The notes below the pieces were generated by a model. It saw only the letters and a list, made by a program, of their open reading frames with translations, had not been told where the DNA came from and ran no database searches. The translations under genes were made by a program, and so were the position numbers. Of a stretch of DNA of 64,000 bases, positions 1 through 22,442 are shown one piece after another. Each line of letters opens with the position of its first letter. The first letter of the stretch is position 1. The DNA is from an uncultured Flavobacteriaceae bacterium. Lineage in GTDB: Bacteria > Bacteroidota > Bacteroidia > Flavobacteriales > Flavobacteriaceae. The DNA is taken from assembly GCA_947501845.1 (NCBI GenBank), contig CANMXP010000005.1:186001-250000 (forward strand), in the 5' to 3' direction.

Positions 1-1
1 G

Positions 2-424
2 CTTCTTAAAAAAACACGAGACTTTCATTATAAAATAATTGGTTATGATAAAGCGCCGAGTGCGGTTGCTAAAACCCGAGATAATGCGAAAAATGCCCAA
101 TTGGAAGATTTTATTGAGGTTAAGCATGAGGATTTCTTTAAAACTCAAAAAGGAGGAGAGGGGAAGTTACATATGGTATTTAACCCACCGTACGGTGAAC
201 GTTTAAATATTGATATGGAGGAGTTTTATAAGGATATTGGTAATACCCTAAAACGAAATTATCCTGGGACTGATGCTTGGTTTATTACGTCTAATTTAGA
301 TGCTTTAAAGCATGTTGGGTTAAGGCCTTCGCGAAAAATACAGTTATTTAATGCCAAGCTAGAATCACGTTTGGTTAAATATGTGATGTATGAGGGTAGC
401 AAGAAAGGGAAGTATATGAAGTAG
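2..424 (+). CDS. Class I SAM-dependent RNA methyltransferase, C-terminal part (RlmL-like)
   Basis: This is the last 140 or so codons of a gene that enters from the left edge; the frame is open from base 2, so the first methionine-like codon at 101 is not the real start. The key motif is NPPYGERL near base 185, the N-P-P-Y signature of methyltransferases that modify a base exocyclic amine. The following residues (DAWFITSNLDALKHVGLRPSR) fit the C-terminal end of the THUMP-domain RlmL/YcbY family, which makes m2G2445 in 23S rRNA. The THUMP domain and the SAM-binding loop lie outside the window, so the exact substrate is inferred from family. Confidence 0.75.
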   Translation, partial: LLKKTRDFHYKIIGYDKAPSAVAKTRDNAKNAQLEDFIEVKHEDFFKTQKGGEGKLHMVFNPPYGERLNIDMEEFYKDIGNTLKRNYPGTDAWFITSNLDALKHVGLRPSRKIQLFNAKLESRLVKYVMYEGSKKGKYMK

Positions 425-787
425 TTGATTTCTTTGACTTGAACTGAGCTTGTTTTAGTAAGACAGAAATGTGTTTATTATGACTTGAAATTAGATAAAA
501 ATGCGTTCTGTTTTATTATCAAACGGACTGAAATCTTTTGACGTTTTAGAACTAAAAATCCATAAAAAACTACACTCTATTAATTTAAAATATGGCTTCG
601 TTTGTTTTATGACTTACTCGATATGGTACTCGTCATAGACGAAGCGCTAGCTCATATGAGGACTAGCTGGGGACTATAAATCAATCAATTAACTTTTTAC
701 TAAGCATCAAAATATTAGTTTACTGATTTTTAATGAGTTACAAAATTGTGTTTTTATGCCGTTCTTGCAGCCAAAAAGGCATAAAAA

Positions 788-811
788 AACCACAACTTTT
801 ACATTGTGGTT
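788..811. terminator. Hairpin, copy 1 of a duplicated terminator-like sequence
   Basis: AACCACAA (788-795) pairs perfectly with TTGTGGTT (804-811). An A-run precedes it. Its loop (CTTTTACA) resembles that of the copy at 1036-1061. Confidence 0.5.
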
Positions 812-1032
812 CTTAATTTCTATTCGCTTACTCATACTCGCCACTAGTTTTAAAAACTAGCGGTAGCCATACTAGGGAAGAGTGGGGGAAGGGCAACTTT
901 CCAGTTATGACAGGGAAGTTTGCCACTTAAGTTAATTTATATTTTATTTGTTTTTACCATAGAATACGGGGGTTATTGTGAATATAGTTTCTTTTTTGTC
1001 TTATAAGCTTATTCGTCGAACATAAAAACTAG

Positions 1033-1063
1033 AAAAAACCACAGCCTTTACATTGTGGTTTTT
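1033..1063 (-). terminator. Terminator of the RHS locus
   Basis: AAACCACA (1036-1043) pairs with TGTGGTTT (1054-1061) around a 10-base loop. The A-run at 1033-1038 becomes a U-run on the minus strand. It lies 31 bases past the stop codon of the last minus-strand gene. Confidence 0.7.
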
Positions 1064-1093
1064 ATTTGTCTTTTCACGGATTGTAAGTCCTCG

Positions 1094-1834
1094 CTATCGG
1101 GTGTGATCCTTCCATTCCATTGACGATAACACAAAATCAATTTCGTCTTGTGTGAAGCTTTTGAATACAAAAATCCATTCTTCTTCTTCTTTAAAAATAG
1201 TTATCGTAACGGTTTTACAGCTATTATCAGGAGAACAGAATTGAAAACCTTTATAATTGGCATTATAAATCCTAAAAATATTCTTATCTCCCCCATTCGG
1301 AAGAGTTATTGCTTTTAATTTTGTTAATCTCAAATTATATTTAATGTCGTCATAATTATCCAACAACAAATTCATTTTAGGAACATGTGAATATATCTTA
1401 TTATATAATTCGTAATTATTTTCAATTCTAATTCCTTTATTAATCTTTGCGACTTCATCTTTCAAATTTTCTATTACCATATCAGACTTGCTAGTTAAAT
1501 GAAATAATATTCCTTTATTTTGTTTGTTGCCTTCAATAGTTCCTCCTACCAAAGCATTATCTTTGGAAATCAAATGAATGCTATCTTTAGCAGAGTTAAA
1601 AGGTAATTTGAACTTTATATGCAATAATGAAGTATCTATATGAGTAAACATACAGTCTCTATTTAATTTTCTATTAACAGGATAAAGCATTACATAATCT
1701 TTCTCGGAATCATATCCAGTGAAGGATGATGAATAATAAGCATCTTCTTGTACATAATAATAAACATATTTGGATCCCATGTAAACTAAAAAAACTATAA
1801 AGAATGATACTACTATAATTATTTTCTTTTTCAT
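1094..1834 (-). CDS. Membrane-anchored hypothetical protein, candidate RHS immunity protein
   Basis: I do not recognise a family for this 246-residue protein. It begins with a lysine-rich start and one hydrophobic segment (about residues 4-24), so it is probably anchored in the inner membrane with the rest outside the cytoplasm, or exported. The body has no visible catalytic motif; two cysteines (FCSPDNSC) could form a disulfide. It starts only 5 bases after the stop of the 1942-residue RHS gene on the same strand, and the terminator follows it. In polymorphic toxin systems the gene directly after the toxin encodes its immunity protein, so that role is inferred from position only. It could also be an unrelated envelope protein. 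Confidence 0.6.
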   Translation of the reverse strand: MKKKIIIVVSFFIVFLVYMGSKYVYYYVQEDAYYSSSFTGYDSEKDYVMLYPVNRKLNRDCMFTHIDTSLLHIKFKLPFNSAKDSIHLISKDNALVGGTIEGNKQNKGILFHLTSKSDMVIENLKDEVAKINKGIRIENNYELYNKIYSHVPKMNLLLDNYDDIKYNLRLTKLKAITLPNGGDKNIFRIYNANYKGFQFCSPDNSCKTVTITIFKEEEEWIFVFKSFTQDEIDFVLSSMEWKDHTR

Positions 1835-1839
1835 AAATA

Positions 1840-4800
1840 TTAGTTTTGAACTTTTTGACCTCCATAAAGCATTTTCTCTAAGGCTTCAAAATTTGACATA
1901 AAATACTCAGCCGTCTGATAATCTAAAGCAGAACCATCGCCTCTTAGGGCAGAATATACTTTAAAAGGACCTTTAGCTGCTTGATACATTGATGGAATAG
2001 TTTGTCCCGTTGTAAATTGTATAATTTTTTGGTACTCATAAACAAAATTAATGACCTTATTATTTATTTTAACTAAATTCCCTCCGTTACCAGTTTCTCG
2101 CGCTAGTTTGATTTGTTGCATATACCTATAAACATGAGCTCCACCTGCAAAAGCTCCTATTTGATGAAAATGTCCATCACTCAATGGATTTTGTAAATCT
2201 AACTGATTAATAACTAGCGATCTCTGTCTTAATCCTTGCTCAACTATTTTTAGTTGATAGTTAACCATTGCTAAATAAGTATCATAATATTGCGCAAAGA
2301 TTTTAAAAGAAACACTTCTTGGTAGTAATCCTCCTAAGGAATTATAAACATTTTGTAGTGCTTTTGTTTGGTCTTGTGATGTTGCACCTGCTCCTAAAGA
2401 ATAAAAGCCATCTAGCGCATTAAAAGCCTTATCGAATTTCTTTCCTGTCTTTCTAAGACCTTTTAAGGTTTTTCTTGTTTCTTTCACTACTTCTCTAGGA
2501 TCGGGATCTTGATTATCTTCACTGCTTCCAGAATTTCCCTTAAGTATTTTGAAAGCATCTATAGCATCTTGACCTGTAAAAGTAACGTTATTGCCTCCAT
2601 CTTTTATTATTACATCCGCACCACTTGGATCTGCAAAAACAATAGGGTTGTTATCGTAACCATTATATGGACTTAGATTATGATGAGTAACAGGGTCAAT
2701 AGAAGTCCATCTTGCAATTGCAGGATCATATCTTCTTATATCCATTTCGTATATGTTTAATCCAAATGATTCTTCATATTCTTTTCCATTATACTTGAAC
2801 TTGGAAGCTATACTATTTGTATTAGCCAATACTACTTTGTTATACCCCTTATGTTTGAGCCCAAAGGGATAGTAATTATTCTCCTCCAGTATTTCAGTTG
2901 TAGCTGTAATACTTCCATTGCCATCAGTATCGCTATAGCTCAACCTGATATTCCCCAAATGGTCTTTGTATTGGTATACATAATCCCCCTCTAGCTCCCC
3001 CGAAGTGGGAGGATTTGTTACATCAAAATAACCCTCTGGGTGGTTAAAGAATTTCAAAGAACCATTTTCGTATACGTGATTGCCTGCATACTCGGTTGTT
3101 GCTCCTGTGCTCACTATCTTCTTAAGCTTAACACCTGTAGCGTCGTAAATGTAAGAAATATTTCCGCCTCCCAAAACAACTTGGGTAGGTAAATTTAAAT
3201 GGTTGTATGTTATATTCGTTGAAATACCTTTGTTGGCATCGGTAAGCATATTGCCGTTGGCATCGTAGGTATATTCGGTAGCGGTATTGGCACCGTCCTT
3301 AAACCCGTAGATGCTGTTGCTGTTGTCCTGCACCTTAACAAGCTTGTTGCTATTGTTGAGATAGGTATATACCAGATTGTCCATGGTGTCAAAGGACGTT
3401 GCAGCACTGTTGGTATGCCCACGTCTTTCCAGACTGGTAATGTTTCCGTTCTTGTCGTAGGCTACCGATTTTAGGTTATAATTTGTATCGGTGGCGTTAA
3501 TGGCGCTTGTAATTCTATTTAAAGCGTCGTAGTTGTAGGTATACCATTTTAGACCGTTATCGCTGTTGGCTGTTTTCCACTCGGTCTCTGAAATATTACC
3601 ATTAAACAATGTGGTACCACTGTGGTCGACAGTATTATAATTAATTTTAAAGCCAAAAAGATCGGTTCCTAATGTTATGGGATTGTTTATTTGTTTTAAC
3701 CAACCCCGAATGTTATAGGTGTAATCTATATTTTGCAGTCTGCCCTGGGTCGTTTTACCACCAACACCTTTGTTGGTAAGTTGGCCTAGTTCGTCATAGG
3801 TGTTTTCGGTAATGACCTCAAGTATGTTGGTGTTATTTAATTCTTGTGTTTGCTTTTTTAACCTGCCACTATGATCGTAGGTAAAAAGGTCTTCGGTAAC
3901 AATGTTAGTTGTTCCTTTAGTATGGGAGGCGACCGTTTTATTGATTGCACCCGAAAAATCAAGGGTGTTTTCTATAATATCTGTAGTTCCCAAATAATCA
4001 TTCTCACTTTTTACGTAGATGGGGCGTCCTTTTATATCGTATCCCGTTGTGGTAGTAATCCAATCATCTTCACCTAAAACCCTTACTTTACTACATGTGC
4101 TAAGCCCCTTGGTAAGTAATGGATCTGTATTGTCATTATTTATAATGTTTTGTCCACCAGAACTGCTCGGTAAGTTACTAAACCCGTTAAAAGTATAATT
4201 ATCGTAATAATTAATGGTATGTATTTCTGAAATCCCAGTTGTTGGATACACACTACTATCGTTACTATAATATAAAGTAGTTCCAGAAACAGTGTTAGGC
4301 GATGCGCTTTTAGTAACATATTGTGCACTGGTACTATTCGCTAAATTTTGCAATGTTATCCTATTACTGTTTGAACTCATTAACCCCGTGTAGGCCACCC
4401 TGCCAAATACATCGTATTTGGTAAACAACCACTTATTTTGGGTGCTTAAGTTGGCATCTTGCGTTAAAATAGGCTGGTCTAATTTATTATAGACAATAGA
4501 CTCCCAGCCTTTTCCTGGAATTTTCTTTTCTACCAATCGGTTTTTATTATCATATTTATATTGATAACATAGTTCTGCCAGTTCTGTAGCATCTGGCAAA
4601 GCAGTATGAGGTTCCGCTTTAGGCGGTAATACGTAACTTAAATTTCCGTACGTATCGTATACATAATAGGTGTCATGGGCGATACTGCTGTTATATGTAC
4701 GTTTTAATATTACACGCCCTTGCTTGTCTTTAAACTCTTCGGTACTGTGGTTATTGCCACTGGTCCAGTTTTCATCTTTGGTAACCGTTTTAAAAAGTGT

Positions 4801-7668
4801 TCCTGCGGCATAATAATTAGTACCTCCAGTTAAAGTTGGGGCATAGGTGTTATTGGCCAAGCTTAAGCTGACTTCAAATATTTTAACCTCATTGGCCGTA
4901 TTGCTAGCATATTCAAATTTTATGGTATGATCGGTATCGCTTGTTTTATTAAGTAGCCAATCATTACCAGGAGCTCCTTGTTCTAATACACGATTTAAAG
5001 GTGAGTTTTCTAAATGTTTTTCTGAATACGGATTGGTGGTATTCTCATATTTCGCCGTATTATAAAAATTGTTGGTTGTTGTTAGGGCATTGTTTTTATA
5101 TAAACCACTGTTTACTGCTAGTGCATGCGGTAAATAGTCTTTGCTTTGCCTGCCAAAGGCATCATAATCAATATGGGTAATGATATCTTCTTTGTTGCCT
5201 CCCGTTCGAATAGCAATATTTTGCATAGGCCTGCCCAATCCGTCAAAATAAGTAACCGTTTCTATTTTATTGGAGTTGGTGAGCGTGGTACTGTTGGTTG
5301 TAGCAATTCTAGGGGTGATATTGTATATGTAGTTTTCATTACTAAGTACGGTCTGTAAGGGACAACCATTGTTGGCAGCTGTTCCAGAGGAAGCTGGACA
5401 TTGGTCACTATTATCTGTAACATAGCCGTTAGGTGCTACACTATAAAAAACACTTACTGTTGGATCTCCAAAGCCATCACCATCGCTATCTTGATAAAAA
5501 TTCTGTGGTGCTATATTGGTAATATTCACATTGGTATCGTCCAAATCACTGTTATTGCTCACATAATTTGTAGGCGCACTACATGTTGATGTAGATACTG
5601 ATGCATTGCCATAACCATCGTTATCGGTATCGGCATACCAAGTTGTGGGTAGCGCAACAGTATAGTTGACTGTTCTAGCAGTACTCCAACATAAGGAGGT
5701 ATTATGTCTGGCTCTTAAATAATAAACAGTACCAGAGGTTCTGGTCATACTGCTTGCCGAATTACTGGTGCTGGTTCCCGAACTGCTACTTTGCCAGTAC
5801 CAGGTAACCCCACTAGGCGCCGAGCCTTTGGTAAGTACTGTATTGCCACAATTACTGGTAATGGTGGGAGCACTTGGCGTAGTTGGTGCGGTTTTTACGG
5901 TGTAGTTGACTGTTCTAGTGGCACTCCAACATAAGGAGGTATTATGTCTGGCTCTTAAATAATAAACAGTGCCAGAGGTTCTGGTCATACTGCTTGCCGA
6001 ATTGCTAGTACTGGTCCCTGTACTGCTACTTTGCCAGTACCAGGTAACCCCACTAGGCGCAGAACCTTTGGTAAGTACTGTATTGCCACAATTATTGGTA
6101 ATGGTGGGAGCACTCGGGGTTGTTGGTGCAGCTTTTACAGTATAGTTAACTGTTCTAGCGGCACTCCAACATAGGGAGGTATTATGTCTGGCTCTTAAAT
6201 AATAAACAGTACCAGAGGTTCTGGTCATGCTGCTTGCCGAATTACTGGTACTTGTGCCCGAACTACTACTTTGCCAGTACCAAGTAACCCCACTAGGAGA
6301 AGAACCTTTGGTAAGTACGGTATTGCCGCAATTACTGGTAATGGTGGGAGCACTTGGCGTAGTTGGTGCGGCTTTTACGGTATAATTGACCGTTCTAGCG
6401 GCACTCCAACATGAGGAACTGTTATGTCTGGCTCTTAAATAATATACGGTACCAGAAGTTCTTGTCATACTGTTTGCCGAATTGCTAGTACTGGTTCCCG
6501 AACTGCTACTTTGCCAGTACCAGGTAACCCCGCTAGGCGCCGAGCCTTTGGTAAGTACGGTATTCCCACAATTATTGGTAATGGTGGGAGCGCTAGGAAC
6601 TCCTGCTGTATTAACACTATAGTTCACGGTTCTGGCAGCTCCCCAACAACCTGTATTATTGTCCCTAGATCGTAAATAATATACAGTGCCACTAGTAAGC
6701 GTAATATGATTACTTGAATTAGCTGCTCCTGTAGATGTTCCCGTTGGACTACTTTGCCAATAAAATGTTTCTGAACTATTTAAAGAACCACTATGAAAAA
6801 TTACTGTGTGTCCACATGAATTGGACATGGTTATATTTGTTAAAGGTAAATCTGGTATGGTTTTTATGGCATAGTTTACCGAGCGAGCGGTACTCCAACA
6901 TTGTGTCGTGTTATTTCGCGACCTTAAATAATAAACAGAACCATTTGTTAATGTAATTTGGCTTGAGGAATTACTTGTACTGGTTCCTGATGCACTACTT
7001 TGCCAATACCAAGTTTCCCCACTTGGTATTGATGTACTTCTTGTTAACACACTATTTCCACAATTATTAACTACTGACGGGTGTGCAGGAGTATTAGGCA
7101 TCGTTTTTATACTGTAATTCACAGTACGTGCACTGCTCCAAACGGATGACGAGTTATTCCTTGATCGTAAATAATACACATTACCACTTGTTAATGTCAT
7201 ACTGCTTGCCGAATTACTAGTGCTGGTTCCTGTTGGACTACTCTGCCAATACCAAGTTTCCCCACTTGGTGGATTTCCTCGGGTTAGGACACTATTACCG
7301 CAATTATTAACTACGGTTGGAGCTGTTGGTGTACTGGGTAAAGGTGCAATAGCGACATTTAGTGTTTCTAATATGGTTGATCCTTTTTTAAAATTAACAG
7401 TTCCAACCCCTGAGCCTCCCCACTGTATAGTTACATGGAATACAGTATTCCCATTTGCGCTACTAGAAGTTATAGTTCCTCCTGTTACGCTCCAACTTGT
7501 TCTAATATGTGGTGAACCATTAAAAAAAGCATAATCATGCGTGCTATTTGGTGTTACGGAATTTGGGCCTTCTATATTTTGGCTAAAACTAAATTGGAAA
7601 AATGTAAAAATGACTAATAGACCAATAGCCTGTTTTTTATATTTAGATATATTGAATAGTAATGTCAT
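1840..7668 (-). CDS. Large secreted RHS/YD-repeat protein with Ig-like modules and unknown C-terminal domain
   Basis: This 1942-residue protein has, in order: a signal peptide ending near residue 30; a PKD-like domain (about 31-108); seven tandem modules of about 80 residues (about 110-673), each with NCGN, a WYWQSS core, YYLR and usually CW, giving one likely disulfide per module; aspartate-rich calcium-binding-like loops (about 673-770, DSDGDGFGD); a DUF6443-like start of the RHS part (FDGLGRPMQN); many YD repeats; the RHS core signature RRYDPAIARWTSIDP near 1650; and about 265 residues after DPSGAD that match nothing I know. Module 1 has Val where the second Cys is expected. No T9SS sorting domain is visible at the C-terminus. 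RHS proteins form a shell around a variable C-terminal cargo, often a toxin; that function is inferred here. It is the middle gene of a three-gene operon. Confidence 0.85.
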   Translation of the reverse strand: MTLLFNISKYKKQAIGLLVIFTFFQFSFSQNIEGPNSVTPNSTHDYAFFNGSPHIRTSWSVTGGTITSSSANGNTVFHVTIQWGGSGVGTVNFKKGSTILETLNVAIAPLPSTPTAPTVVNNCGNSVLTRGNPPSGETWYWQSSPTGTSTSNSASSMTLTSGNVYYLRSRNNSSSVWSSARTVNYSIKTMPNTPAHPSVVNNCGNSVLTRSTSIPSGETWYWQSSASGTSTSNSSSQITLTNGSVYYLRSRNNTTQCWSTARSVNYAIKTIPDLPLTNITMSNSCGHTVIFHSGSLNSSETFYWQSSPTGTSTGAANSSNHITLTSGTVYYLRSRDNNTGCWGAARTVNYSVNTAGVPSAPTITNNCGNTVLTKGSAPSGVTWYWQSSSSGTSTSNSANSMTRTSGTVYYLRARHNSSSCWSAARTVNYTVKAAPTTPSAPTITSNCGNTVLTKGSSPSGVTWYWQSSSSGTSTSNSASSMTRTSGTVYYLRARHNTSLCWSAARTVNYTVKAAPTTPSAPTITNNCGNTVLTKGSAPSGVTWYWQSSSTGTSTSNSASSMTRTSGTVYYLRARHNTSLCWSATRTVNYTVKTAPTTPSAPTITSNCGNTVLTKGSAPSGVTWYWQSSSSGTSTSNSASSMTRTSGTVYYLRARHNTSLCWSTARTVNYTVALPTTWYADTDNDGYGNASVSTSTCSAPTNYVSNNSDLDDTNVNITNIAPQNFYQDSDGDGFGDPTVSVFYSVAPNGYVTDNSDQCPASSGTAANNGCPLQTVLSNENYIYNITPRIATTNSTTLTNSNKIETVTYFDGLGRPMQNIAIRTGGNKEDIITHIDYDAFGRQSKDYLPHALAVNSGLYKNNALTTTNNFYNTAKYENTTNPYSEKHLENSPLNRVLEQGAPGNDWLLNKTSDTDHTIKFEYASNTANEVKIFEVSLSLANNTYAPTLTGGTNYYAAGTLFKTVTKDENWTSGNNHSTEEFKDKQGRVILKRTYNSSIAHDTYYVYDTYGNLSYVLPPKAEPHTALPDATELAELCYQYKYDNKNRLVEKKIPGKGWESIVYNKLDQPILTQDANLSTQNKWLFTKYDVFGRVAYTGLMSSNSNRITLQNLANSTSAQYVTKSASPNTVSGTTLYYSNDSSVYPTTGISEIHTINYYDNYTFNGFSNLPSSSGGQNIINNDNTDPLLTKGLSTCSKVRVLGEDDWITTTTGYDIKGRPIYVKSENDYLGTTDIIENTLDFSGAINKTVASHTKGTTNIVTEDLFTYDHSGRLKKQTQELNNTNILEVITENTYDELGQLTNKGVGGKTTQGRLQNIDYTYNIRGWLKQINNPITLGTDLFGFKINYNTVDHSGTTLFNGNISETEWKTANSDNGLKWYTYNYDALNRITSAINATDTNYNLKSVAYDKNGNITSLERRGHTNSAATSFDTMDNLVYTYLNNSNKLVKVQDNSNSIYGFKDGANTATEYTYDANGNMLTDANKGISTNITYNHLNLPTQVVLGGGNISYIYDATGVKLKKIVSTGATTEYAGNHVYENGSLKFFNHPEGYFDVTNPPTSGELEGDYVYQYKDHLGNIRLSYSDTDGNGSITATTEILEENNYYPFGLKHKGYNKVVLANTNSIASKFKYNGKEYEESFGLNIYEMDIRRYDPAIARWTSIDPVTHHNLSPYNGYDNNPIVFADPSGADVIIKDGGNNVTFTGQDAIDAFKILKGNSGSSEDNQDPDPREVVKETRKTLKGLRKTGKKFDKAFNALDGFYSLGAGATSQDQTKALQNVYNSLGGLLPRSVSFKIFAQYYDTYLAMVNYQLKIVEQGLRQRSLVINQLDLQNPLSDGHFHQIGAFAGGAHVYRYMQQIKLARETGNGGNLVKINNKVINFVYEYQKIIQFTTGQTIPSMYQAAKGPFKVYSALRGDGSALDYQTAEYFMSNFEALEKMLYGGQKVQN
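5650..6610. repeat. Four near-identical 240-bp tandem repeats inside the RHS gene
   Basis: The same landmark (ATTATGTCTGGCTCTTAAAT) recurs at 5701, 5941, 6181 and, with one change, 6421, an exact 240-bp period. These encode modules 7 to 4 of the RHS protein. Modules 1-3 (about 6610-7350) are diverged. The near identity at DNA level suggests recent amplification or gene conversion. Confidence 0.95.
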
Positions 7669-7691
7669 AACTATAAATATTATTTTGTTGA

Positions 7692-10600
7692 TTATTGTTG
7701 AGGTATTTGCAGGTTTTTATAATGGTACTTATTGGCTGATAAAATGTTGCCCTCTGCATCTTTTACAAATTCCAATCGATTAAAGGCGTCGTACTCATAA
7801 TTGGTGATATAGCCCTTGGGGTCTGTCATACTGGTAACCCCAACCAAGGGATTGTAGGTATAGGTAGTGACCATGGCATTGGGCAGCCCAGCCCTGATCT
7901 TGTCTAGGGTCGTTATCATGGTATTTTGATTATAGCTTCCATCTTTAATTGCTGTTAGTTCTGCAGATGTAAGAGTTGCTATAACAGCTGCATAGGTGGC
8001 ATTCTCTATTTTGGCCACAGGATATGCTTCATCATAACCCCAGATAATACTTGTAGTTGCTCCATTCTCAATATGATATTGTGTAATATTTCCATTCTCA
8101 TAGCTATCAAAAGTATACTTGCGGTCATCGTTATTGTTAACATCAACTAGTGCCCCTTTTTTACTGAATACTTTTTGGGGTAAGTGCAAACCATTAAAGG
8201 CAGCATATTGGACTTTGGAATGACTAACAATTTGACTGTCTTCTAAAATTTTAGTTTCTAGAGGCACTGAAATCTCATTGCTCGTAATTAAAGGGGTATC
8301 ATTTAAATCTTGGGCATACTTATAACTGGTTTCTAAAACAACACCTTTAGAGTTTGTCATTGTCGTTTTTTGAACCTCCTGATTTAGGCTATTATATACA
8401 TAATTGGTAGATGTAAGCAATTCGTTGATTAAAGTGCCGCTAGCATCATAAAAATATTGTGTCAAATCTGTTTGATCTTTTTTATACCAATAAATAGGGA
8501 TGCTGGATTCTAATAATTCTTTGGTCTCTCCTAAAGTAAATGGAGGGGTTATACAACCTGGGTGATCAAGTAAGTTTGAACTGCCATGGCTATACATTTT
8601 AAAGTCTGCTCTGGTATTGCTAACATTTAGATTTTGTGAATATAAATGACTTTCTTTTGTTAAAATCTTGTTTTGTTCATTATAAACTTCTTTTGAAAGC
8701 AACTGACCGCGTTCATGGCCTGAATTAACTCGAATAGAACCGTTATTATCATCGGCTATGATGTTCGGGGTGGTGGTATATTTATAATCGGTACGACCAT
8801 TGGTATTGCCTAGCTCATCTTTGTTTAATTCAGTTACATACTCATAAGTAATCCCATTACCTTCAAAGCCTGATCGGGATGAAGATCCATATGTATAAGT
8901 ATAAGTTGTTGTGTCTGACCCCGGTGAAGGCAAACAACTCCCTTGATTATAGTAAACGAAATCTGTAAAGCGATCATATTTAAAATTCGTATTAACTAGT
9001 TTTCCACTAGAATTACTTGTGCCTGGACTATTATAGAGGTACTCTTTTTGATTTATAAAGGTATCATCATGATTAAAATTGGTAATATTCTTTATACGCA
9101 AACCAAACCCCTGTACATTTTCATTGGGCAAATTACCTAATTTATTAAGGTAAGAAGCTTGGATATGTGCTTCTACAAGGCTTCCATAAACTTCTAAAAC
9201 AACAGTAATTGTTCCAGCACTTAAGGTTGGAGTACTAAGATAATCATTACTATATCCTCTAAAATTCAGTGTTTCTGAACTATTATTTAAGACCCTTATA
9301 TTGGCATAGGCGTGTTTAGCATTCGTATCATCGCAGCCTGTACAGGTTAGACTTCCTGTAAGAATTAATGTAGTTGCCTCATTTAAATTAAAACTAAAAA
9401 CTTCGGTTTGAATATCGGGATCTTCTATTGGAGAGGGAATGTTGTTTCCATTACCTGTACCTATTATATCCAATGTTTCTGTTACTGTTGTATTCTTTAA
9501 AAAAATGTTTTTGCCATAAAATGAATTGGGTTCGTAAGTAAACGTTGTATACCCTTTGGTTGGATATTTAATTTTTGTAAGCATTCCAGCCTGCATTTTA
9601 GTAAGATCGATAGATCGGTCGGCAGCACCAATCTGATAAAAAGTACCTAAATTTTGTACTATAATGTCTCGTTTTGGTATTAAATTGGTATTGGACTTTC
9701 CATTATAATTACCAAAATAATCCATTGAAAAGGATCTTAAATGCGGGAGTTGCTCCAATGAGTATTCTAAACTAACCACTTCTTTTTCATCAATTGTCCC
9801 ATAAGTTTCGTAAACCCGATCTAACTTAAAACGGTATTTGTCAACTCCCAAATAATTTGTAAGATCACCTGTTGTACTGTATTCAAAATGTATGGTCTTC
9901 ATTTCAGTATAACCAGATGCAACGTTGCCTTCTTCAATGATGATTTTATCCAGATAAACACCATTGACACCATCACCCCCTGCATATTGTGTATTACTAG
10001 TTGTTATAAAACGTACCCGCCCATTAGGAAATGAAATTTCTTGTAATTTATTTGCAAATGTTAGAGAGGTAGAACTATTACTGATCCATCCAAACATTTG
10101 GGATGTTTCAAATAGCTCACTCTGATTTCTTCCTTTGGAATAAGTATATTTTTGAGAATGGCTTTCTCCAGACGAAAAACTAGTATATTGAGTCCCATAG
10201 CTATAAGTTAAAACATCACCCTTGGTATTGGTTATTTTATTGAGTAACCATGCCGATTTGTATGGTGTATTATGTATATGGGTGCCACCACCACTTGTTG
10301 GTTTGTTTAATTGGCTTTGCTCATAATCTACAAATTCGTATTGAATCCCTTGTTTGTCAATAATTTTATATAGATATGGATTGTGCACATTAACTGTTTT
10401 ATGTCTGTATATTTTAAATTGATCTGGCGGAAACTTGGTTGTTACTTCGCCATCGTTATCTGAATCAAGAAAAAAGGTTCCGTTCACCGTAGGCAGGCTA
10501 ATTTGATAAGCATCTTTAACCCATGAGTATTTTTCGGCATTAAGAACATCTGGAACTTGATAGTCGTAGGGGTTGGCACCTATAGTATTTGTTAAAGCGG

Positions 10601-10964
10601 TTACATTTGGAATGGTATAAGGATCTGACTCTAACTCATCTGGCGTGTCTCTGGTTTCTAAACTTATCAAACCACCTGTATCCATTGCCCAGCCTAGTCC
10701 AACCCATGAGGGTACTTGATTTACTTTAATACCCGAAGCATGGTATTTTAATTTAATAGGAATCTGTATATCGCCAGACACAACCGTATATAAGGGAATT
10801 TCTATATTAGGCAAGCCTGAAGCAAGGTTAACGGGATAGGCCCCATATGTACCTAGTTCTGAAGCTGTAGGGGCTGGTGGAAATATATCAGGTAATTTTT
10901 CCTGACCTGAAACAATATTAATAGAAAATAAGGCTAAAACTAAAAACGATAAAGGTGTTTTCAT
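7692..10964 (-). CDS. Secreted RHS/YD-repeat-like protein, first gene of the RHS locus
   Basis: This 1090-residue protein starts with a clear signal peptide (MKTPLSFLVLALFSINIVSG). Residues 25-110 carry the segment typical of RHS/SpvB-like shells in this phylum (YPVNLASGLPNIEIPLYTV, then WVGLGWAMDTGG). The middle is beta-rich with many YxY and YD patterns. The last 60 residues form a clean YD repeat (GYITNYEYDAFNRLEFVKDAEGN). It has no RHS core signature and no variable C-terminal tip, so it looks like the shell-forming partner of the downstream 1942-residue protein, 23 bases away on the same strand. Whether the two assemble together is inference. The gene heads the operon, but I see no convincing TAnnTTTG promoter before it. 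Confidence 0.8.
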   Translation of the reverse strand: MKTPLSFLVLALFSINIVSGQEKLPDIFPPAPTASELGTYGAYPVNLASGLPNIEIPLYTVVSGDIQIPIKLKYHASGIKVNQVPSWVGLGWAMDTGGLISLETRDTPDELESDPYTIPNVTALTNTIGANPYDYQVPDVLNAEKYSWVKDAYQISLPTVNGTFFLDSDNDGEVTTKFPPDQFKIYRHKTVNVHNPYLYKIIDKQGIQYEFVDYEQSQLNKPTSGGGTHIHNTPYKSAWLLNKITNTKGDVLTYSYGTQYTSFSSGESHSQKYTYSKGRNQSELFETSQMFGWISNSSTSLTFANKLQEISFPNGRVRFITTSNTQYAGGDGVNGVYLDKIIIEEGNVASGYTEMKTIHFEYSTTGDLTNYLGVDKYRFKLDRVYETYGTIDEKEVVSLEYSLEQLPHLRSFSMDYFGNYNGKSNTNLIPKRDIIVQNLGTFYQIGAADRSIDLTKMQAGMLTKIKYPTKGYTTFTYEPNSFYGKNIFLKNTTVTETLDIIGTGNGNNIPSPIEDPDIQTEVFSFNLNEATTLILTGSLTCTGCDDTNAKHAYANIRVLNNSSETLNFRGYSNDYLSTPTLSAGTITVVLEVYGSLVEAHIQASYLNKLGNLPNENVQGFGLRIKNITNFNHDDTFINQKEYLYNSPGTSNSSGKLVNTNFKYDRFTDFVYYNQGSCLPSPGSDTTTYTYTYGSSSRSGFEGNGITYEYVTELNKDELGNTNGRTDYKYTTTPNIIADDNNGSIRVNSGHERGQLLSKEVYNEQNKILTKESHLYSQNLNVSNTRADFKMYSHGSSNLLDHPGCITPPFTLGETKELLESSIPIYWYKKDQTDLTQYFYDASGTLINELLTSTNYVYNSLNQEVQKTTMTNSKGVVLETSYKYAQDLNDTPLITSNEISVPLETKILEDSQIVSHSKVQYAAFNGLHLPQKVFSKKGALVDVNNNDDRKYTFDSYENGNITQYHIENGATTSIIWGYDEAYPVAKIENATYAAVIATLTSAELTAIKDGSYNQNTMITTLDKIRAGLPNAMVTTYTYNPLVGVTSMTDPKGYITNYEYDAFNRLEFVKDAEGNILSANKYHYKNLQIPQQ

Positions 10965-11191
10965 TTGGTTTGAGATTATAATGAAATTTGGATTAAATAT
11001 TTTGTGGTAAAAGTATGGATGTTGTAGGAATAAAAAGTAGGGTTTTACCTTACTTTTTGTAAGGTTTTTAAAAAAAATATAATTTTAAGGAATAATTATT
11101 TATGTACAGGCGACCAATAACTGTGTTATAGACGTTATAAAACAGCAAATTGATTTAAAAATTTATTTTGTAATGTAGGATGTATTAATTT

Positions 11192-12607
11192 TTATAAATC
11201 AAGAACCTCCACAATATCCCCTATAAATTTCATGGCTTCTGCTTCGAGGTGCTGGTATAATGTATTAAAATTATTGAGATTGGGACGCTCCATTAATATA
11301 TGCTCAACAATTGAAAACCCTTCCAGATTGTTTGGTATATGATATTTGTTCCAATCGCTGTTTCTAAATATATCCCAATATTTTTTTTGTATTTGCCTAT
11401 TTTGTCCAGCCAGACAAATTCCAAACTGCATTTTATTATAGCTAAAGATGATGACAATTTTAAGTTTTTGGTTCTTCAATGAAATTGGGGTAAACGGAAA
11501 GTATGAAAAATTTATATTTCCTTGATAAATGCTTCCTGTTTTATAGTCAATAGGATAGGTCTTTTTTAAATACGTTCTTAATCCTTTTATGCAGGCGAGT
11601 AATTTTTTGTAGTCTTTTTGTATACGATCTTCTTCACTTTGTTTTCCGCAAGGTATTAAGTTATCATTATCTGTTCGCTCGCTTTTTTTACTAGAATGCC
11701 TGTTTTTAGTATTTGGCTTTTTAGTGGGGATACAAATATCAACTATGAATTTATGCTCAGGGTGTGTGCTATGGTCATTATGATATAACTCAAAATAATG
11801 ACCATCTTCAAATTCGTAACCATTTTCCAATACCCACACGCATGTACTATCCCAGGCTTTAGAAAAAGAGTCAGGTGCTATTTCAAAAGTACCTACAGCA
11901 TAATACCCTTCTTTAATGAGAACCTTTTTTACAGGGCTTTCAACTGGTACATCTTCATGTGCTGTAAAGCAAGTACTTAGTCTTACTTTAGATGGATCTG
12001 TCACTTTGGGGTTGTCGTGATATACGGTTACTGCTTTTAGATTTGGAACATTTAGCAAGTCTTTAGTTGTCATCCATTTTATTAACTTTTCGTAACTGTC
12101 TCCAACCTTATTAAATTCACCAATATGGGTTATTCCAATAAGCGTCATTTCAGAAAGCTTTTTTATTTCTATTTGTCCATTCATTTTAATCCAATCTAAG
12201 GCATTATCGATTTGACAAATATATTTTTCAATCGATTTTGAGTCTACACCAATCTTGCTAATTTTATTTTTAGACTTAAATGCCGTAGGGGATATGCCGT
12301 AAAAATTTTTAAATGCTCTTGAAAAAGCATTACCACTACTAAAACCATATCTAAAAGCCAGTTCGGTTATAGACGCATTGGTTCCAACTAGTAAAATAGC
12401 GGCGATTCTTTCAATTCTTTTTCTACTAATAAATTCATTGATAGGCTCACCAGTTATAAATTTAAAAAGCCTGTGAAAATGAAATGGCGAGTAGCAGGCT
12501 TTTTTAGACAATCCTTCAAGTGATAACTCTTTGGCTAAATTATTTTCGATATAGTCAATGACTATATTAATTCTTTTTATATAGGCTTTTTCCGTATTGT
12601 CATTCAT
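11192..12607 (-). CDS. AraC-family regulator fused to a GyrI-like domain and an extra C-terminal domain
   Basis: Residues about 12-115 form two AraC helix-turn-helix motifs (LSLEGLSKKACYSPFHFHRL and ITELAFRYGFSSGNAFSRAF), a DNA-binding regulator. Residues about 145-300 match the GyrI-like effector-binding fold (IGITHIGEF near its start, EGYYAVGTFEI later). Residues about 325-471 form a further domain (GSIYQGNINFSYFPFTPISL, then KYWDIFRNSDWNKYHIPN) that I recall as DUF7000-like; normally it is a separate protein. AraC-GyrI proteins sense small hydrophobic or cationic ligands, but the target genes here are unknown. The gene is single, divergent from the ThuA-like gene, with about 208 bases between them. 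Confidence 0.85.
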   Translation of the reverse strand: MNDNTEKAYIKRINIVIDYIENNLAKELSLEGLSKKACYSPFHFHRLFKFITGEPINEFISRKRIERIAAILLVGTNASITELAFRYGFSSGNAFSRAFKNFYGISPTAFKSKNKISKIGVDSKSIEKYICQIDNALDWIKMNGQIEIKKLSEMTLIGITHIGEFNKVGDSYEKLIKWMTTKDLLNVPNLKAVTVYHDNPKVTDPSKVRLSTCFTAHEDVPVESPVKKVLIKEGYYAVGTFEIAPDSFSKAWDSTCVWVLENGYEFEDGHYFELYHNDHSTHPEHKFIVDICIPTKKPNTKNRHSSKKSERTDNDNLIPCGKQSEEDRIQKDYKKLLACIKGLRTYLKKTYPIDYKTGSIYQGNINFSYFPFTPISLKNQKLKIVIIFSYNKMQFGICLAGQNRQIQKKYWDIFRNSDWNKYHIPNNLEGFSIVEHILMERPNLNNFNTLYQHLEAEAMKFIGDIVEVLDL

Positions 12608-12815
12608 TCTTAAAGTATTACTGGTCGATTAGAATGTTATAATTGAAATTGTATTTGAGGTTTAATGGAATTGATTTTCAAACATAACTAAAAACTTGGT
12701 GTTTTGTGAGAAAAAATTACGGCTTTTATTTTGTCATTCTTCTTTATTTAAATTGGGACGGTGTTTTATTTAAGAATTGTATATTTAGCTAAAATTATAT
12801 TTAATCATTATTATA

Positions 12816-13856
12816 ATGTTCAAAATTCAAAAACCTTTCCTATTATCAGTTTTAGCCCTTATGCTTTTAACTAGCCTACAAAGTTGTGGAACACCTCAAA
12901 AAGCAAAATTAAAAGCTTTGATTATTGATGGTCAAAATAATCATGGTGTATGGCCAAAAACAAGCATCATGATGAAAAGTTATTTAGAGGAAACAGGCTT
13001 GTTTGAAGTGGATATACAACGTACCAATTATATGTGGATAGGCCCTCATTTTAATAAAATAGAAGGTGTTGAGAAAATAGAAGAGTTATTGGAAATATAT
13101 CCGATTGATGAAGAAAAGAGAACCTTGGTTGATAAGCCAAAGTCAGACCCCGATTTTAGCCCTAACTTTGAAGCTTATGATCTGGTTATTTCAAATTTTG
13201 GGTGGAAAACAGCTAATTGGAATGATGCTACTAAAAAGAATTTTGAAAGTTATATGCGCAATGGTGGTGGATTTGTTCTTATTCATGCAGCTAATAATGC
13301 CTGGGGGGATTGGGATGCCTTTAATGAAATTATTGGACTAGGCGGCTGGGGCGGTAGGAATACCGAAAGTGGCCCGTATGTGTACTATGATGCGAATAAT
13401 AAATTAAATCATGATACTTCTGATGGGCCTTGTGCGAGCCACGGACCTCAGTTGGAATATCAATTAAAGACGCGTGCTCCAGAGCATCCAATAATGAAAG
13501 GGCTTCCTGACACTTGGTTACATACTAAAGATGAATTGTACGAGCGCCTACGTGGACCAGCTAAAAATATGACCGTATTGGCAACAGCATTTTCTGGAAC
13601 AGATGCAGATGTATCTAAAGCAGATAAAAATAAAGGGCGTACAGGTAGACATGAGCCGCTATTAATGGCTGTTGAGTATGGCAAGGGACGCATCTTTCAT
13701 TCGGCTTTAGGTCACATGGATTACTCTATGGAATGTGTTGGGTTTATAACAACACTACAGCGTGGTGCAGAATGGGCTGCTACTGGTAAGGTGACTCAAA
13801 GTATTCCTGAAGATTTTCCTACTGCCGATGCTATAAGTGCAAGAAAATTTAAGTAA
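12816..13856 (+). CDS. ThuA-like domain lipoprotein
   Basis: The first 24 residues are a lipoprotein signal ending in LQSC, so the mature protein is probably lipid-anchored in the envelope. The rest is one ThuA-like domain, related to class I glutamine amidotransferase folds and common in sugar-related loci of this phylum. Visible family features are LIIDGQNNHGVWPKT near the start, the FVLIHAANNAW segment, and GKGRIFHSALGHMDYSM near the end. The function of ThuA-like domains is only partly known; a link to carbohydrate metabolism is family knowledge and nothing around this gene adds to it. It is monocistronic and converges on the DUF6048 gene. Confidence 0.85.
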   Translation: MFKIQKPFLLSVLALMLLTSLQSCGTPQKAKLKALIIDGQNNHGVWPKTSIMMKSYLEETGLFEVDIQRTNYMWIGPHFNKIEGVEKIEELLEIYPIDEEKRTLVDKPKSDPDFSPNFEAYDLVISNFGWKTANWNDATKKNFESYMRNGGGFVLIHAANNAWGDWDAFNEIIGLGGWGGRNTESGPYVYYDANNKLNHDTSDGPCASHGPQLEYQLKTRAPEHPIMKGLPDTWLHTKDELYERLRGPAKNMTVLATAFSGTDADVSKADKNKGRTGRHEPLLMAVEYGKGRIFHSALGHMDYSMECVGFITTLQRGAEWAATGKVTQSIPEDFPTADAISARKFK

Positions 13857-13912
13857 TAGTTTATGTTGTCATTGTACTTGTTGGTATGCTAATACTAACC
13901 AAAGTTTAACGG

Positions 13913-14644
13913 TTATTTATCTTTCTTGAAAAGCGGAATTCGATAAGAGAGTGTATAACTATAACCTGTACCAATACCACTACTGTCAAAGGTTTTGTTG
14001 AATCCAGGGATGTAAACATTTTCAAAATTATCGGGAACGGTTTCACTGGCCAATATTTTAAGTTGTGCATTCAGCCCCAAGTATAGATTATTAAATAATT
14101 CTACTTTTATACCTAAAATAATCTCCGCCCATATAGCTGTTAAACCACTAAATTCTTGTTTTTCATTCGAAGAAAATTGTGGTGCCCAATATTGGTTTGT
14201 ACTGTAAACAGTAAAACTATTTAAATCATGACTAAACGAACTTGCCCCTATACGAAAACCAGAATAGATCATATTATCCATATTCAACCAATTTTGATAC
14301 ATATTAAAGTCAATACCGCCTTTAATGTATGAGCCTTTACTTGTAACATCTAAATACTCACTAACTGTTTTTTTTTCTTCAATACCAATTTCACCAGCAA
14401 TGTATAGGCGCTTTTTTAGTCTGTAATCTGCCGAAATTTCAAATCCGCTATATTCTTCATCTACAAATGAACGGATCAATTTACCTATATCGCCACCTAC
14501 ACGAAGTCCATATTTCAATTTTACTTTTATAGTATCATTTGAAGTGCTAGGAATACTGTCATTTTGTGCGTTTACAGATACACACAAAAAGAGTAGGCAT
14601 ACTAAGCTACTAATGAGACATTGAAAAGTGCGCTGCTGTTTCAT
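13913..14644 (-). CDS. DUF6048 family protein, secreted beta-barrel-like
   Basis: This 243-residue protein has a signal peptide ending near residue 26 (CVSVNAQ) and a body of alternating hydrophobic strands (GLRVGGDIGKLI, YIAGEIGIEEK, GSYIKGGIDFNMY), ending in a phenylalanine-rich strand close to the C-terminus. That pattern suggests a small outer-membrane barrel. It overlaps the DUF6452 gene upstream by 35 bases, which implies translational coupling. In flavobacteria this pair usually sits next to rlmD, as here, which is why I use the DUF6048 name. Its role is unknown. Confidence 0.75.
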   Translation of the reverse strand: MKQQRTFQCLISSLVCLLFLCVSVNAQNDSIPSTSNDTIKVKLKYGLRVGGDIGKLIRSFVDEEYSGFEISADYRLKKRLYIAGEIGIEEKKTVSEYLDVTSKGSYIKGGIDFNMYQNWLNMDNMIYSGFRIGASSFSHDLNSFTVYSTNQYWAPQFSSNEKQEFSGLTAIWAEIILGIKVELFNNLYLGLNAQLKILASETVPDNFENVYIPGFNKTFDSSGIGTGYSYTLSYRIPLFKKDK

Positions 14645-20681: not shown

Positions 20682-22442
20682 CTATTTATTGGCCACTATA
20701 ATTTTTTTGTTAAATACCTGATTATTCTTCAAGCTTATTTGGACAACATATACACCATCATTAAGTAATTTTGTAGAGTATGTATATGCCTTTTTTAAAT
20801 TTAAAACCCTTTCATTCTGGATTTTTTTACCTGTGACATCGAATAAGTCAATAGCTTTTATATTCAAAGAATTTGGGTTTAAGATTTTCAATTCAGAAAT
20901 ATTATTATTTTGAAATACTTTTATATCATCAAGATTAGTTTCAATAGTGTTTAAAGTGTTTTCACTGAAAACAATTTGAAATCGATCTTTATAGTTATTG
21001 GCATCAAGATTAATATTAAAATCTTGAGTTTTTAAATTAACAAATGTATTGCTTTCGGTATCATGTATATAAATAGGTTGCTCATTTTCAAAATTTTGAA
21101 TATCTGTGATTCTAATTCTAATTTGAGATTCTCCGTTTACTCTAAGAGCTAAAGGAATACTTAAAGCATTATCAAAAGGCAATGCTTCACTGAGGTAAGG
21201 TTTTCCGTCAACTAGCAAATGCGCATCTGAAGCCAAAATATCGCTTTCATGTATATTGGATTCTAATCCATAATCAAAACCATGTGTAGCTGAGTTATGA
21301 AATGTTTCAACCAATTGTCTGGTATAAGTATCATTAAAATCAACATTTAGTCTAAAACGTTTATAATCATTCGGGACTTTTGAAAACCCATTTATATTTT
21401 TTGAAATTTTCCTTTTCGTATTTTTAAAAAACTCAGTAGAATCTGTTGCTATTGATTCCCTTTTATAAACACGATGACTATTTTTAGCTTTTACTGTTCC
21501 AGTTGCAGTTCCTTCAACCATGAAACCTTGTCCGATAGGGATATAGCGTCTAGGGCGTTTCCCACTAGGACTTCCACTTCCTGCTCCATTAATAGCACCA
21601 TTGCCATTATAAGTACTAAAAGTTGCAGGTGTGTAAGTTTCAACCAATCCATCGGCACTAATAGTATATGTGGCATAGCCGCCGTCGTAATGTTTAATGT
21701 GATGTGAGTTTACACTAGGGTTTTGTTCCCAAAAATGTAAAGTACCTGTAATTACAGTAGCATTTTCAGGGTCATGAATATAAGCTAATGCATCTAGAGC
21801 AGAGGGGTATGGATTTCCTGTTAATGTAAATTGAGTATCTAAAACACTTACGCTTATAGTGCCATTGTTGGGCTTGCCTCTAAAATCGTATTGCTGTGCA
21901 CCACCAGATCCGCTAGTCCCTTTCATTGTAAAGCCTTCGCCAGGGTTTAAGGTGGTAGCTCCTTGTACATGTATCCAATCAGAATATGAGTCTGAGGCTA
22001 CAAACTTCCAAACCCAATACGGCTCAATAGTTAAAGGGACAGCAGTACTATTATAACCAGCTACATGAGCTATAGTAGCAGGTGTAGAAGATATAAGACC
22101 TGTAACATCATTAAGAAGTGTAATTCCAAAAGGATTGTTTACAGAATTACTGGTTTTAGTACCAATGGGTGAACACCAATAATTGTATTCGTATGCATCT
22201 ACATTAGCCTCTTGGTAAAGACTTAACTCTCCAACGCCAGAATTTCCAGTAGTTCCAGAGCCTTGAACAACTTGGGCTTCATCACGTAAATAGATGGTAC
22301 TGTTTGCTTCGTTTAGATTTATATCGTCTTCAACAAAGACAACTTCATCATTTACAAAAAGATAAGCATCATTTCTTACTGATAATTGAGAGAATGATAA
22401 GTTGCTAATTAATAGCAAAAAAAGGGCGCATCTACTGAACAT
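20682..22442 (-). CDS. Secreted protein with T9SS type A sorting domain
   Basis: This 586-residue protein has a signal peptide (about 1-18) and a long beta-rich body. Residues about 90-330 resemble large surface proteins of this phylum (GEGFTMKGTSGSGG, then YIPIGQGFMVEGTATGTVK). The last 70 residues are a type A T9SS sorting domain (IDLFDVTGKKIQNE, LLNDGVYVVQISL, ending KKIIVANK). It is therefore likely to cross the outer membrane by T9SS and be attached to the surface or released. No catalytic motif is visible, so the cargo function is unknown. A TATATTTG promoter element lies about 30 bases upstream. Confidence 0.9.
   Translation of the reverse strand: MFSRCALFLLLISNLSFSQLSVRNDAYLFVNDEVVFVEDDINLNEANSTIYLRDEAQVVQGSGTTGNSGVGELSLYQEANVDAYEYNYWCSPIGTKTSNSVNNPFGITLLNDVTGLISSTPATIAHVAGYNSTAVPLTIEPYWVWKFVASDSYSDWIHVQGATTLNPGEGFTMKGTSGSGGAQQYDFRGKPNNGTISVSVLDTQFTLTGNPYPSALDALAYIHDPENATVITGTLHFWEQNPSVNSHHIKHYDGGYATYTISADGLVETYTPATFSTYNGNGAINGAGSGSPSGKRPRRYIPIGQGFMVEGTATGTVKAKNSHRVYKRESIATDSTEFFKNTKRKISKNINGFSKVPNDYKRFRLNVDFNDTYTRQLVETFHNSATHGFDYGLESNIHESDILASDAHLLVDGKPYLSEALPFDNALSIPLALRVNGESQIRIRITDIQNFENEQPIYIHDTESNTFVNLKTQDFNINLDANNYKDRFQIVFSENTLNTIETNLDDIKVFQNNNISELKILNPNSLNIKAIDLFDVTGKKIQNERVLNLKKAYTYSTKLLNDGVYVVQISLKNNQVFNKKIIVANK

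What the first reader, a model, noticed from the sequence alone, without database searches (positions are those of the whole stretch)
1094..10964. RHS locus with an unknown C-terminal domain and a candidate immunity gene
Seen: two RHS/YD-repeat genes and a small membrane-anchored gene in one operon (gaps of 23 and 5 bases). The large protein ends, after the RHS core and DPSGAD, in about 265 residues I cannot assign. Known: RHS shells carry variable C-terminal toxins, with an immunity gene just downstream. Inference: the C-terminal domain is a new or rare effector and the 246-residue protein is its immunity partner, or the region is a surface-adhesion system.
Basis: partly seen in the sequence, partly recalled or inferred. 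Interest (0 to 1): 0.72.

Follow-up and report, generated by a model that had tools for sequence, protein, structure and literature searches.

The report
RHS toxin tip with immunity partner
A bacterium carries a large shell-protein gene ending in a rare, unnamed tip that travels with its own small membrane-anchored partner gene, the usual sign of a bacterial weapon and its antidote: an unnamed family of a well-known kind.

Summary
Observation confirmed: P0002 (1090 aa), P0001 (1942 aa) and P0003 (246 aa) lie in one operon, gaps 23 and 5 bases. The RHS core ends at residue 1683; the tail has no significant match in Pfam, NCBIfam, PHROGs, PADLOC or PDB sequences. Sequence supports the toxin/immunity reading. 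(1) The only other tail found (L009, uncultured Aquimarina; 59% identical from residue 1725) sits on a truncated RHS tip with an unrelated linker, followed 1 base later by a P0003 homologue. (2) The only further P0003 homologue (genome G328) keeps a 15-residue match to the tail's end just upstream. (3) The genome has six DUF6443 RHS loci, each with a P0002-like gene upstream; in the four whose ends are visible, core similarity stops within 14 residues of DP[SD]G, tails are unrelated, and a different small gene follows, one of them Imm26. The tail's activity is not shown: the AlphaFold model is unusable (pLDDT 44.5). P0003's N-terminal anchor and two conserved cysteines suggest protection outside the cytoplasm, so I infer an envelope target. 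New member of a known kind.

The parts
7692..10964 (-). P0002, first RHS gene (1090 aa): N-terminal hydrophobic stretch that reads like a Sec signal (by eye), YD/RHS repeat near the end (res 1043-1073), no tail domain seen
   Evidence: a similar gene lies upstream of each of the genome's other five DUF6443 genes, in the weakest case (C10) over 97 residues only
1840..7668 (-). P0001, second RHS gene (1942 aa): signal-like N-terminus (by eye), seven Ig_7 stretches, DUF6443, RHS repeat, RHS core, variable tail
4918..5322 (-). DUF6443 domain (PF20041)
2620..2874 (-). RHS-associated core (TIGR03696, res 1599-1683), ending in DPSG
   Evidence: similarity to the three paralogues with visible tails stops at residues 1684-1697
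2497..2619 (-). variable 41-residue linker between core and conserved tail domain (res 1684-1724)
   Evidence: 41 residues here, 74 in L009
1843..2496 (-). putative toxin domain, res 1725-1942 of P0001 (218 aa, no Cys, mostly helical in a low-confidence model)
   Evidence: 59% identical (128 of 217) to L009; no significant family match; model pLDDT 44.5
1094..1834 (-). P0003, putative immunity protein (246 aa): N-terminal membrane anchor, two cysteines invariant in three homologues (C200, C206; spacing C-x4/5-C), 27% GC
1034..1063 (.). terminator-like palindrome just behind P0003; could end the operon
   Evidence: 2 such sites in 400-1900 against a mean of 0.5 in shuffles; the tool lists it on the + strand, and it is flanked by an A-run that reads as a T-run on the - strand

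Best explanation
A polymorphic-toxin locus of the RHS kind. P0002 and P0001 are two parts of a Sec-exported RHS shell. The last ~218 residues of P0001 are the toxin, swappable at the DPSG boundary. P0003 is the cognate immunity protein, anchored in the producer's inner membrane with its body most likely in the periplasm, where it would bind and block toxin arriving from kin. The toxin most likely acts on the cell envelope (periplasm, cell wall or inner membrane) of competing bacteria rather than on cytoplasmic nucleic acid. Shown by sequence: modular swap, linked pair, association in the few cases found, hydrophobic anchor and cysteine pair. Inferred: toxicity, neutralisation, periplasmic site, that P0002 and P0001 form one shell, export across the outer membrane. 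The confidence given is for the toxin/immunity pairing; the envelope target taken alone is a little better than even.
For: Conserved pair: tail 59% identical from res 1725, P0003 homologue 43-44% identical, 1-base gap in L009. Module swap: in L009 the tail sits on a truncated tip with a 74-residue linker instead of 41, and P0001 finds no other RHS sequence in the 16.7 kb. Orphan small gene in G328 with a 15-residue match to the tail's C-terminus (9 identities with L009), score 46, reached by 3 of 3000 first-order random sequences even without requiring the right position. In-genome pattern: six loci with a P0002-like gene upstream; in 4 of 4 with visible ends the tails share no similarity at BLASTP E<=0.01 and neither do the downstream genes; one downstream gene is Imm26, E 4.5e-10, a listed partner of Tox-URI1 (passage of PMC3482391). 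P0003 at 27.1% GC lies below the 25 other window ORFs compared (29.1-40.1%). Envelope: anchor in all three P0003 homologues, two invariant cysteines; no invariant His or Cys between the two tails.
Against: No known toxin family or fold; the AlphaFold model is unusable (mean pLDDT 44.5). Only one other intact tail was found, so catalytic residues cannot be picked out, and 'one-to-one' rests on two outside cases. In G328 the remnant lies near a contig end. Topology of P0003 is inferred from hydropathy and N-terminal lysines. No known secretion tag: no PAAR, no T9SS sorting domain in P0001/P0002.
Confidence: 0.8

Rival explanations
1. A variant of the same pairing: toxin and immunity as above, but the toxin works in the cytoplasm (for example a metal-independent nuclease) and P0003's anchor merely places it at the membrane, perhaps with the body facing the cytoplasm.
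For: Many RHS-linked toxins in the passages seen of PMC3482391 are nucleases; the tail with its linker is basic, pI 9.2.
Against: No invariant His or Cys between the two tails. P0003's first lysines sit before the hydrophobic stretch, which predicts the body outside, and two cysteines are invariant. Only two tails and three P0003 sequences exist to judge by.
Confidence: 0.3
2. The tail is a structural or adhesive cap of a surface RHS protein and the small gene is an accessory anchor.
For: P0001 carries Ig-like repeats as surface proteins do.
Against: A structural cap should be shared by the paralogues; the four visible tails are unrelated and each has its own small gene, one of them Imm26. The tail was found in only 1 of 397 family genomes and 1 of 12 genus genomes, the window's own in both.
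Confidence: 0.06
3. The tail is an anti-eukaryotic effector and P0003 a chaperone.
For: PMC7073777 reports predicted anti-eukaryotic tails on signal-bearing polymorphic toxins of Bacteroidetes.
Against: P0003 persists in G328 where the tail is a remnant, as expected of an orphan immunity gene and not of a chaperone; a membrane-anchored chaperone would be unusual (general knowledge).
Confidence: 0.05

Closest known systems
Rhs-CT/RhsI orphan modules of Enterobacteriaceae (Salmonella LT2; PMC3967940, abstract and passages)
   Same: RHS gene with variable C-terminal toxin behind a DPxG boundary and linked immunity gene; truncated 'orphan' tip plus immunity gene, as the L009 copy looks.
   Different: Here two successive RHS genes with Sec-like signals and DUF6443; different tail and immunity sequences. 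That L009 has a full-length main gene was not shown.
TANFOR polymorphic toxins / BaCT-BaCTic of Bacteroidetes (PMC7073777, results section read)
   Same: Sec-type signals reported for ~87% of members, variable C-terminal toxin, immunity gene directly downstream, export route unsettled (T9SS speculated).
   Different: No TANFOR name among the NCBIfam matches of P0001/P0002; BaCT is a PD-(D/E)xK DNase, and no such family matched this tail.
TcB/TcC-type split RHS shells (recalled, nothing fetched)
   Same: Two proteins that together make one RHS shell, variable tail on the second.
   Different: Resemblance from memory only; no SpvB Pfam match in P0002, and no Tc comparison was made.

Membership tests
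RHS polymorphic toxin | RHS repeats and RHS-associated core ending in DPxG before the tail | tested here: met
   TIGR03696 at 1599-1683, E 1.6e-15; DPSG at its end
RHS polymorphic toxin | C-terminal region differs between otherwise similar proteins, switching at the core boundary | tested here: met
   Paralogues C27, C15 and C10 align to P0001 up to residues 1685, 1697 and 1684; 4 of 4 visible tails unrelated at E<=0.01 (window against C15 E 0.20). C3 and C32 end at contig ends, tails not seen
RHS polymorphic toxin | immunity gene immediately downstream, specific to the tail | tested here: met
   P0003 homologue follows the tail in L009; tail remnant precedes it in G328; other tails have other genes. 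Two outside cases only
RHS polymorphic toxin | tail is toxic and the partner neutralises it | not testable with these tools
   needs expression in laboratory E. coli
T6SS-delivered Rhs effector | N-terminal PAAR or VgrG linkage, no Sec signal (recalled definition) | tested here: not met
   no PAAR match in P0001/P0002; both start with signal-like N-termini (by eye). The genome does have a T6SS gene: TssC E 5.2e-241 on another contig
T9SS substrate | C-terminal sorting domain TIGR04183 / NF033708 | tested here: not met
   none in P0001/P0002, although the genome has SprA and the window a borderline TIGR04183 protein
TANFOR polymorphic toxin | N-terminal TANFOR domain | tested here: inconclusive
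   no such name among NCBIfam matches; whether that library holds a TANFOR model was not checked

The most novel reading that the evidence does not exclude
The tail and P0003 found a new toxin-immunity family that attacks the cell envelope, delivered by a split two-gene RHS shell that reaches the periplasm by Sec and crosses the outer membrane with neither PAAR/T6SS loading nor a T9SS sorting tail: a delivery route for RHS weapons in Bacteroidota that is not yet worked out.
Probability: 0.3. Interest if true: 0.6.

Novelty: new member of a known kind. Interest (0 to 1): 0.4.

Why it matters
It adds a toxin-immunity pair that no library used here names, with an independent second copy, an orphan immunity gene and an inferred envelope target. 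Six two-gene RHS loci in one genome make a tidy test case for how Sec-exported RHS weapons of this kind leave the cell, a question left open for the related TANFOR class in PMC7073777.

Tried and rejected
Fold of the tail (2-sequence alignment) and of P0003 (3 sequences): mean pLDDT 44.5 and 48.6, so no fold search was run. PDB sequence searches: one hit at E 0.43 (IL-10) for the tail; for the P0003 profile 31 sequences at E 0.015 to 2.6 (mainly vinculin and crystallins, also adiponectin), taken as chance. PHROGs: best E 0.13 for the tail and 0.022 for P0003; PADLOC none for either; Pfam at E<=10 none for the tail, E 0.26 for P0003. Rfam on window 1-14000: nothing.

More relatives of the tail: genome contigs (a pattern scan that reaches close relatives only) gave 1 relative among 31 pattern stretches; own genome only in 397 family, 12 genus and 395 phylum genomes; plasmids, phages and viral contigs none. 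In 395 order genomes 5 matched at E<=0.01: own plus G658, G516, G680 and G510 at 8.5e-5 to 0.002, 16-22 bits, each over 56-70 profile positions within 15-101. I dropped these four as chance matches of a charged helical stretch; they were not examined further (L023 of G510 was fetched but not read). The phylum draw's listed rows are mostly those of the order draw, so it adds little. P0003: 2 of 397 family genomes (own, G328), 2 of 391 relatives (own, and G559 at 7.9e-4 over profile positions 2-62 only, dropped as a hydrophobic chance match), none of 600 viral stretches.

L009:1-825 as another RHS tail: by eye only. Pfam found nothing, P0001 does not match it. It shares 35 residues (46%, E 0.003) with the linker of the L009 tip and 9 residues (E 0.006 for a single comparison) with the start of the C27 tail: suggestive, not proof.

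Papers: DUF6443 gave no paper. Other searches: only listings and starts of abstracts were seen, apart from the three papers cited; none of what I saw describes this two-gene layout. That is no proof that it is unpublished.

Full report
Observation. The three genes are as described, on the minus strand at 10964-7692, 7668-1840 and 1834-1094, with gaps of 23 and 5 bases. P0001 carries a signal-like N-terminus (by eye), Ig_7 repeats (7 stretches), DUF6443, an RHS repeat and the RHS-associated core ending at residue 1683. The 259 residues behind DPSG match nothing in Pfam even at E 10, nothing in PADLOC, nothing better than E 0.13 in PHROGs and no solved structure better than E 0.43. P0003 has no significant match either (best: PDB profile hit E 0.015, PHROG E 0.022, NCBIfam E 0.05, Pfam E 0.26). 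A terminator-like palindrome follows P0003 at 1034-1063.

The same tail elsewhere. One pattern scan of the species-genome collection (84,980 genomes by its description) returned one relative, L009, in an uncultured Aquimarina. There the tail ends a 382-codon frame whose RHS similarity begins only at core residue 1598; P0001 finds no further RHS sequence in that 16.7-kb locus, so the tip is truncated. Core-tip identity is 53% (43 of 81); the linker is 74 instead of 41 residues; from REVVK (residue 1725) identity is 59% (128 of 217). One base after its stop begins a 238-codon homologue of P0003, 43-44% identical. Upstream in L009 lie a cut-off frame (1-825) that I take by eye for another RHS tail, a small gene (832-1245) and a set with a repressor-like gene and two tyrosine recombinases; the supporting similarity for that first tail is weak. 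If so, this is the 'main plus orphan' arrangement described for Salmonella rhs (passages of PMC3967940). A main gene was not seen: it would lie beyond the stretch held, and could not reach it.

The partner without the tail. Of 397 family genomes, the window's own and G328 hold P0003. In G328 the gene starts at base 123 of a contig. Just upstream, in one frame, lies a stretch matching the tail's last 15 residues (9 identities with L009, score 46; 3 of 3000 first-order random sequences reach this anywhere in the 122 bases), and before it stops occur in all three frames. No tail was found in the family search that included G328. Because the contig begins there, an assembly fault cannot be wholly excluded.

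Paralogues in the same genome. DUF6443 marks six loci, five over the cut-off and C10 below it (25.6 against 27.8 bits). Each has a P0002-like gene upstream, in two of them (C27, C32) with a 144-150-codon gene between; in C10 the likeness to P0002 covers only 97 residues by BLASTP. Two loci (C3, C32) run into contig ends inside the core. For the other three (C27, C15, C10) similarity to P0001 ends at residues 1684-1697; the four visible tails (221-259 residues, window included) show no similarity to each other at E<=0.01, and the downstream genes (87-246 codons) none either. By eye, the window and C15 share a short DVIIK-x-GG stretch at the start of the linker. C27's downstream gene is Imm26 (E 4.5e-10); its tail shows, by eye, the Tox-URI1 pattern that the 2012 survey lists with Imm26 (passage), though no profile matched the tail. 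This is the pattern that defines polymorphic toxins. P0003 itself occurs once in the genome.

Mechanism. P0003 and both homologues begin with lysines and one hydrophobic stretch (Kyte-Doolittle maxima 2.1-2.8), have no lipobox by eye (the G328 copy has a Cys within the stretch), and share two invariant cysteines, C200 and C206 in P0003. This predicts an inner-membrane anchor with a periplasmic body. The tail is basic (pI 9.2 with its linker), without Cys, without a transmembrane-grade segment (maximum 0.72), mostly helical in a poor model, and the two copies share no His. I therefore favour an envelope target, at a little better than even odds; enzyme or membrane-active cannot be told. Export: Sec-like signals argue against direct T6SS loading, no PAAR was found, and no T9SS sorting domain, although genes of both machines are in the genome (TssC; SprA). 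That the host is a member of the Bacteroidota is my inference from these genes and from the Aquimarina relative; no call names it.

Composition. P0003 has 27.1% GC against 29.1-40.1% for 25 other ORFs of the window; the tail domain has 33.2%, the core 37.8%, the L009 pair 27.7%. This fits, without proving, import of the small gene; the tail domain itself is not unusual for the window (33.7%).

Verdict. A real, ordinary-in-kind but unnamed toxin/immunity pair on an RHS shell. Sequence evidence for the pairing is good though it rests on two outside cases and the in-genome pattern; the activity is open.

Noticed in passing
L009:1448-5324 and L018:202-4102 (own genome C27): A similar-looking four-gene set (HTH gene, 510-522-codon protein without Pfam match, two tyrosine recombinases) lies near an RHS locus in two different genomes; it may help shuffle tail cassettes (the HTH gene of L018 was seen by eye only).
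   Followed up: partly
L009:9816-10415, L010:1095-1658, L020:3581-4138: IS200-like (Y1_Tnp) transposase genes downstream of the small genes; profile-tested in L009 and L010, by eye in L020.
   Followed up: partly
L017 end and L021 start (own genome C3, C32): Both contigs break at the same RHS core sequence, which looks like an assembly break in a repeat, so two tails of this genome are unseen.
   Followed up: no
L018:9883-10335 and L021:3829-4263: A 144-150-codon gene with signal-like start (by eye) sits between the two RHS genes in two of six loci.
   Followed up: no
window 20682-22442: Protein with a borderline T9SS type A sorting domain (23.2 bits, cut-off 23).
   Followed up: no
window 788-811 and 1034-1063: Two similar palindromic terminator-like repeats (ACCACA...TGTGGTT) in the gap behind the operon.
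   Followed up: no
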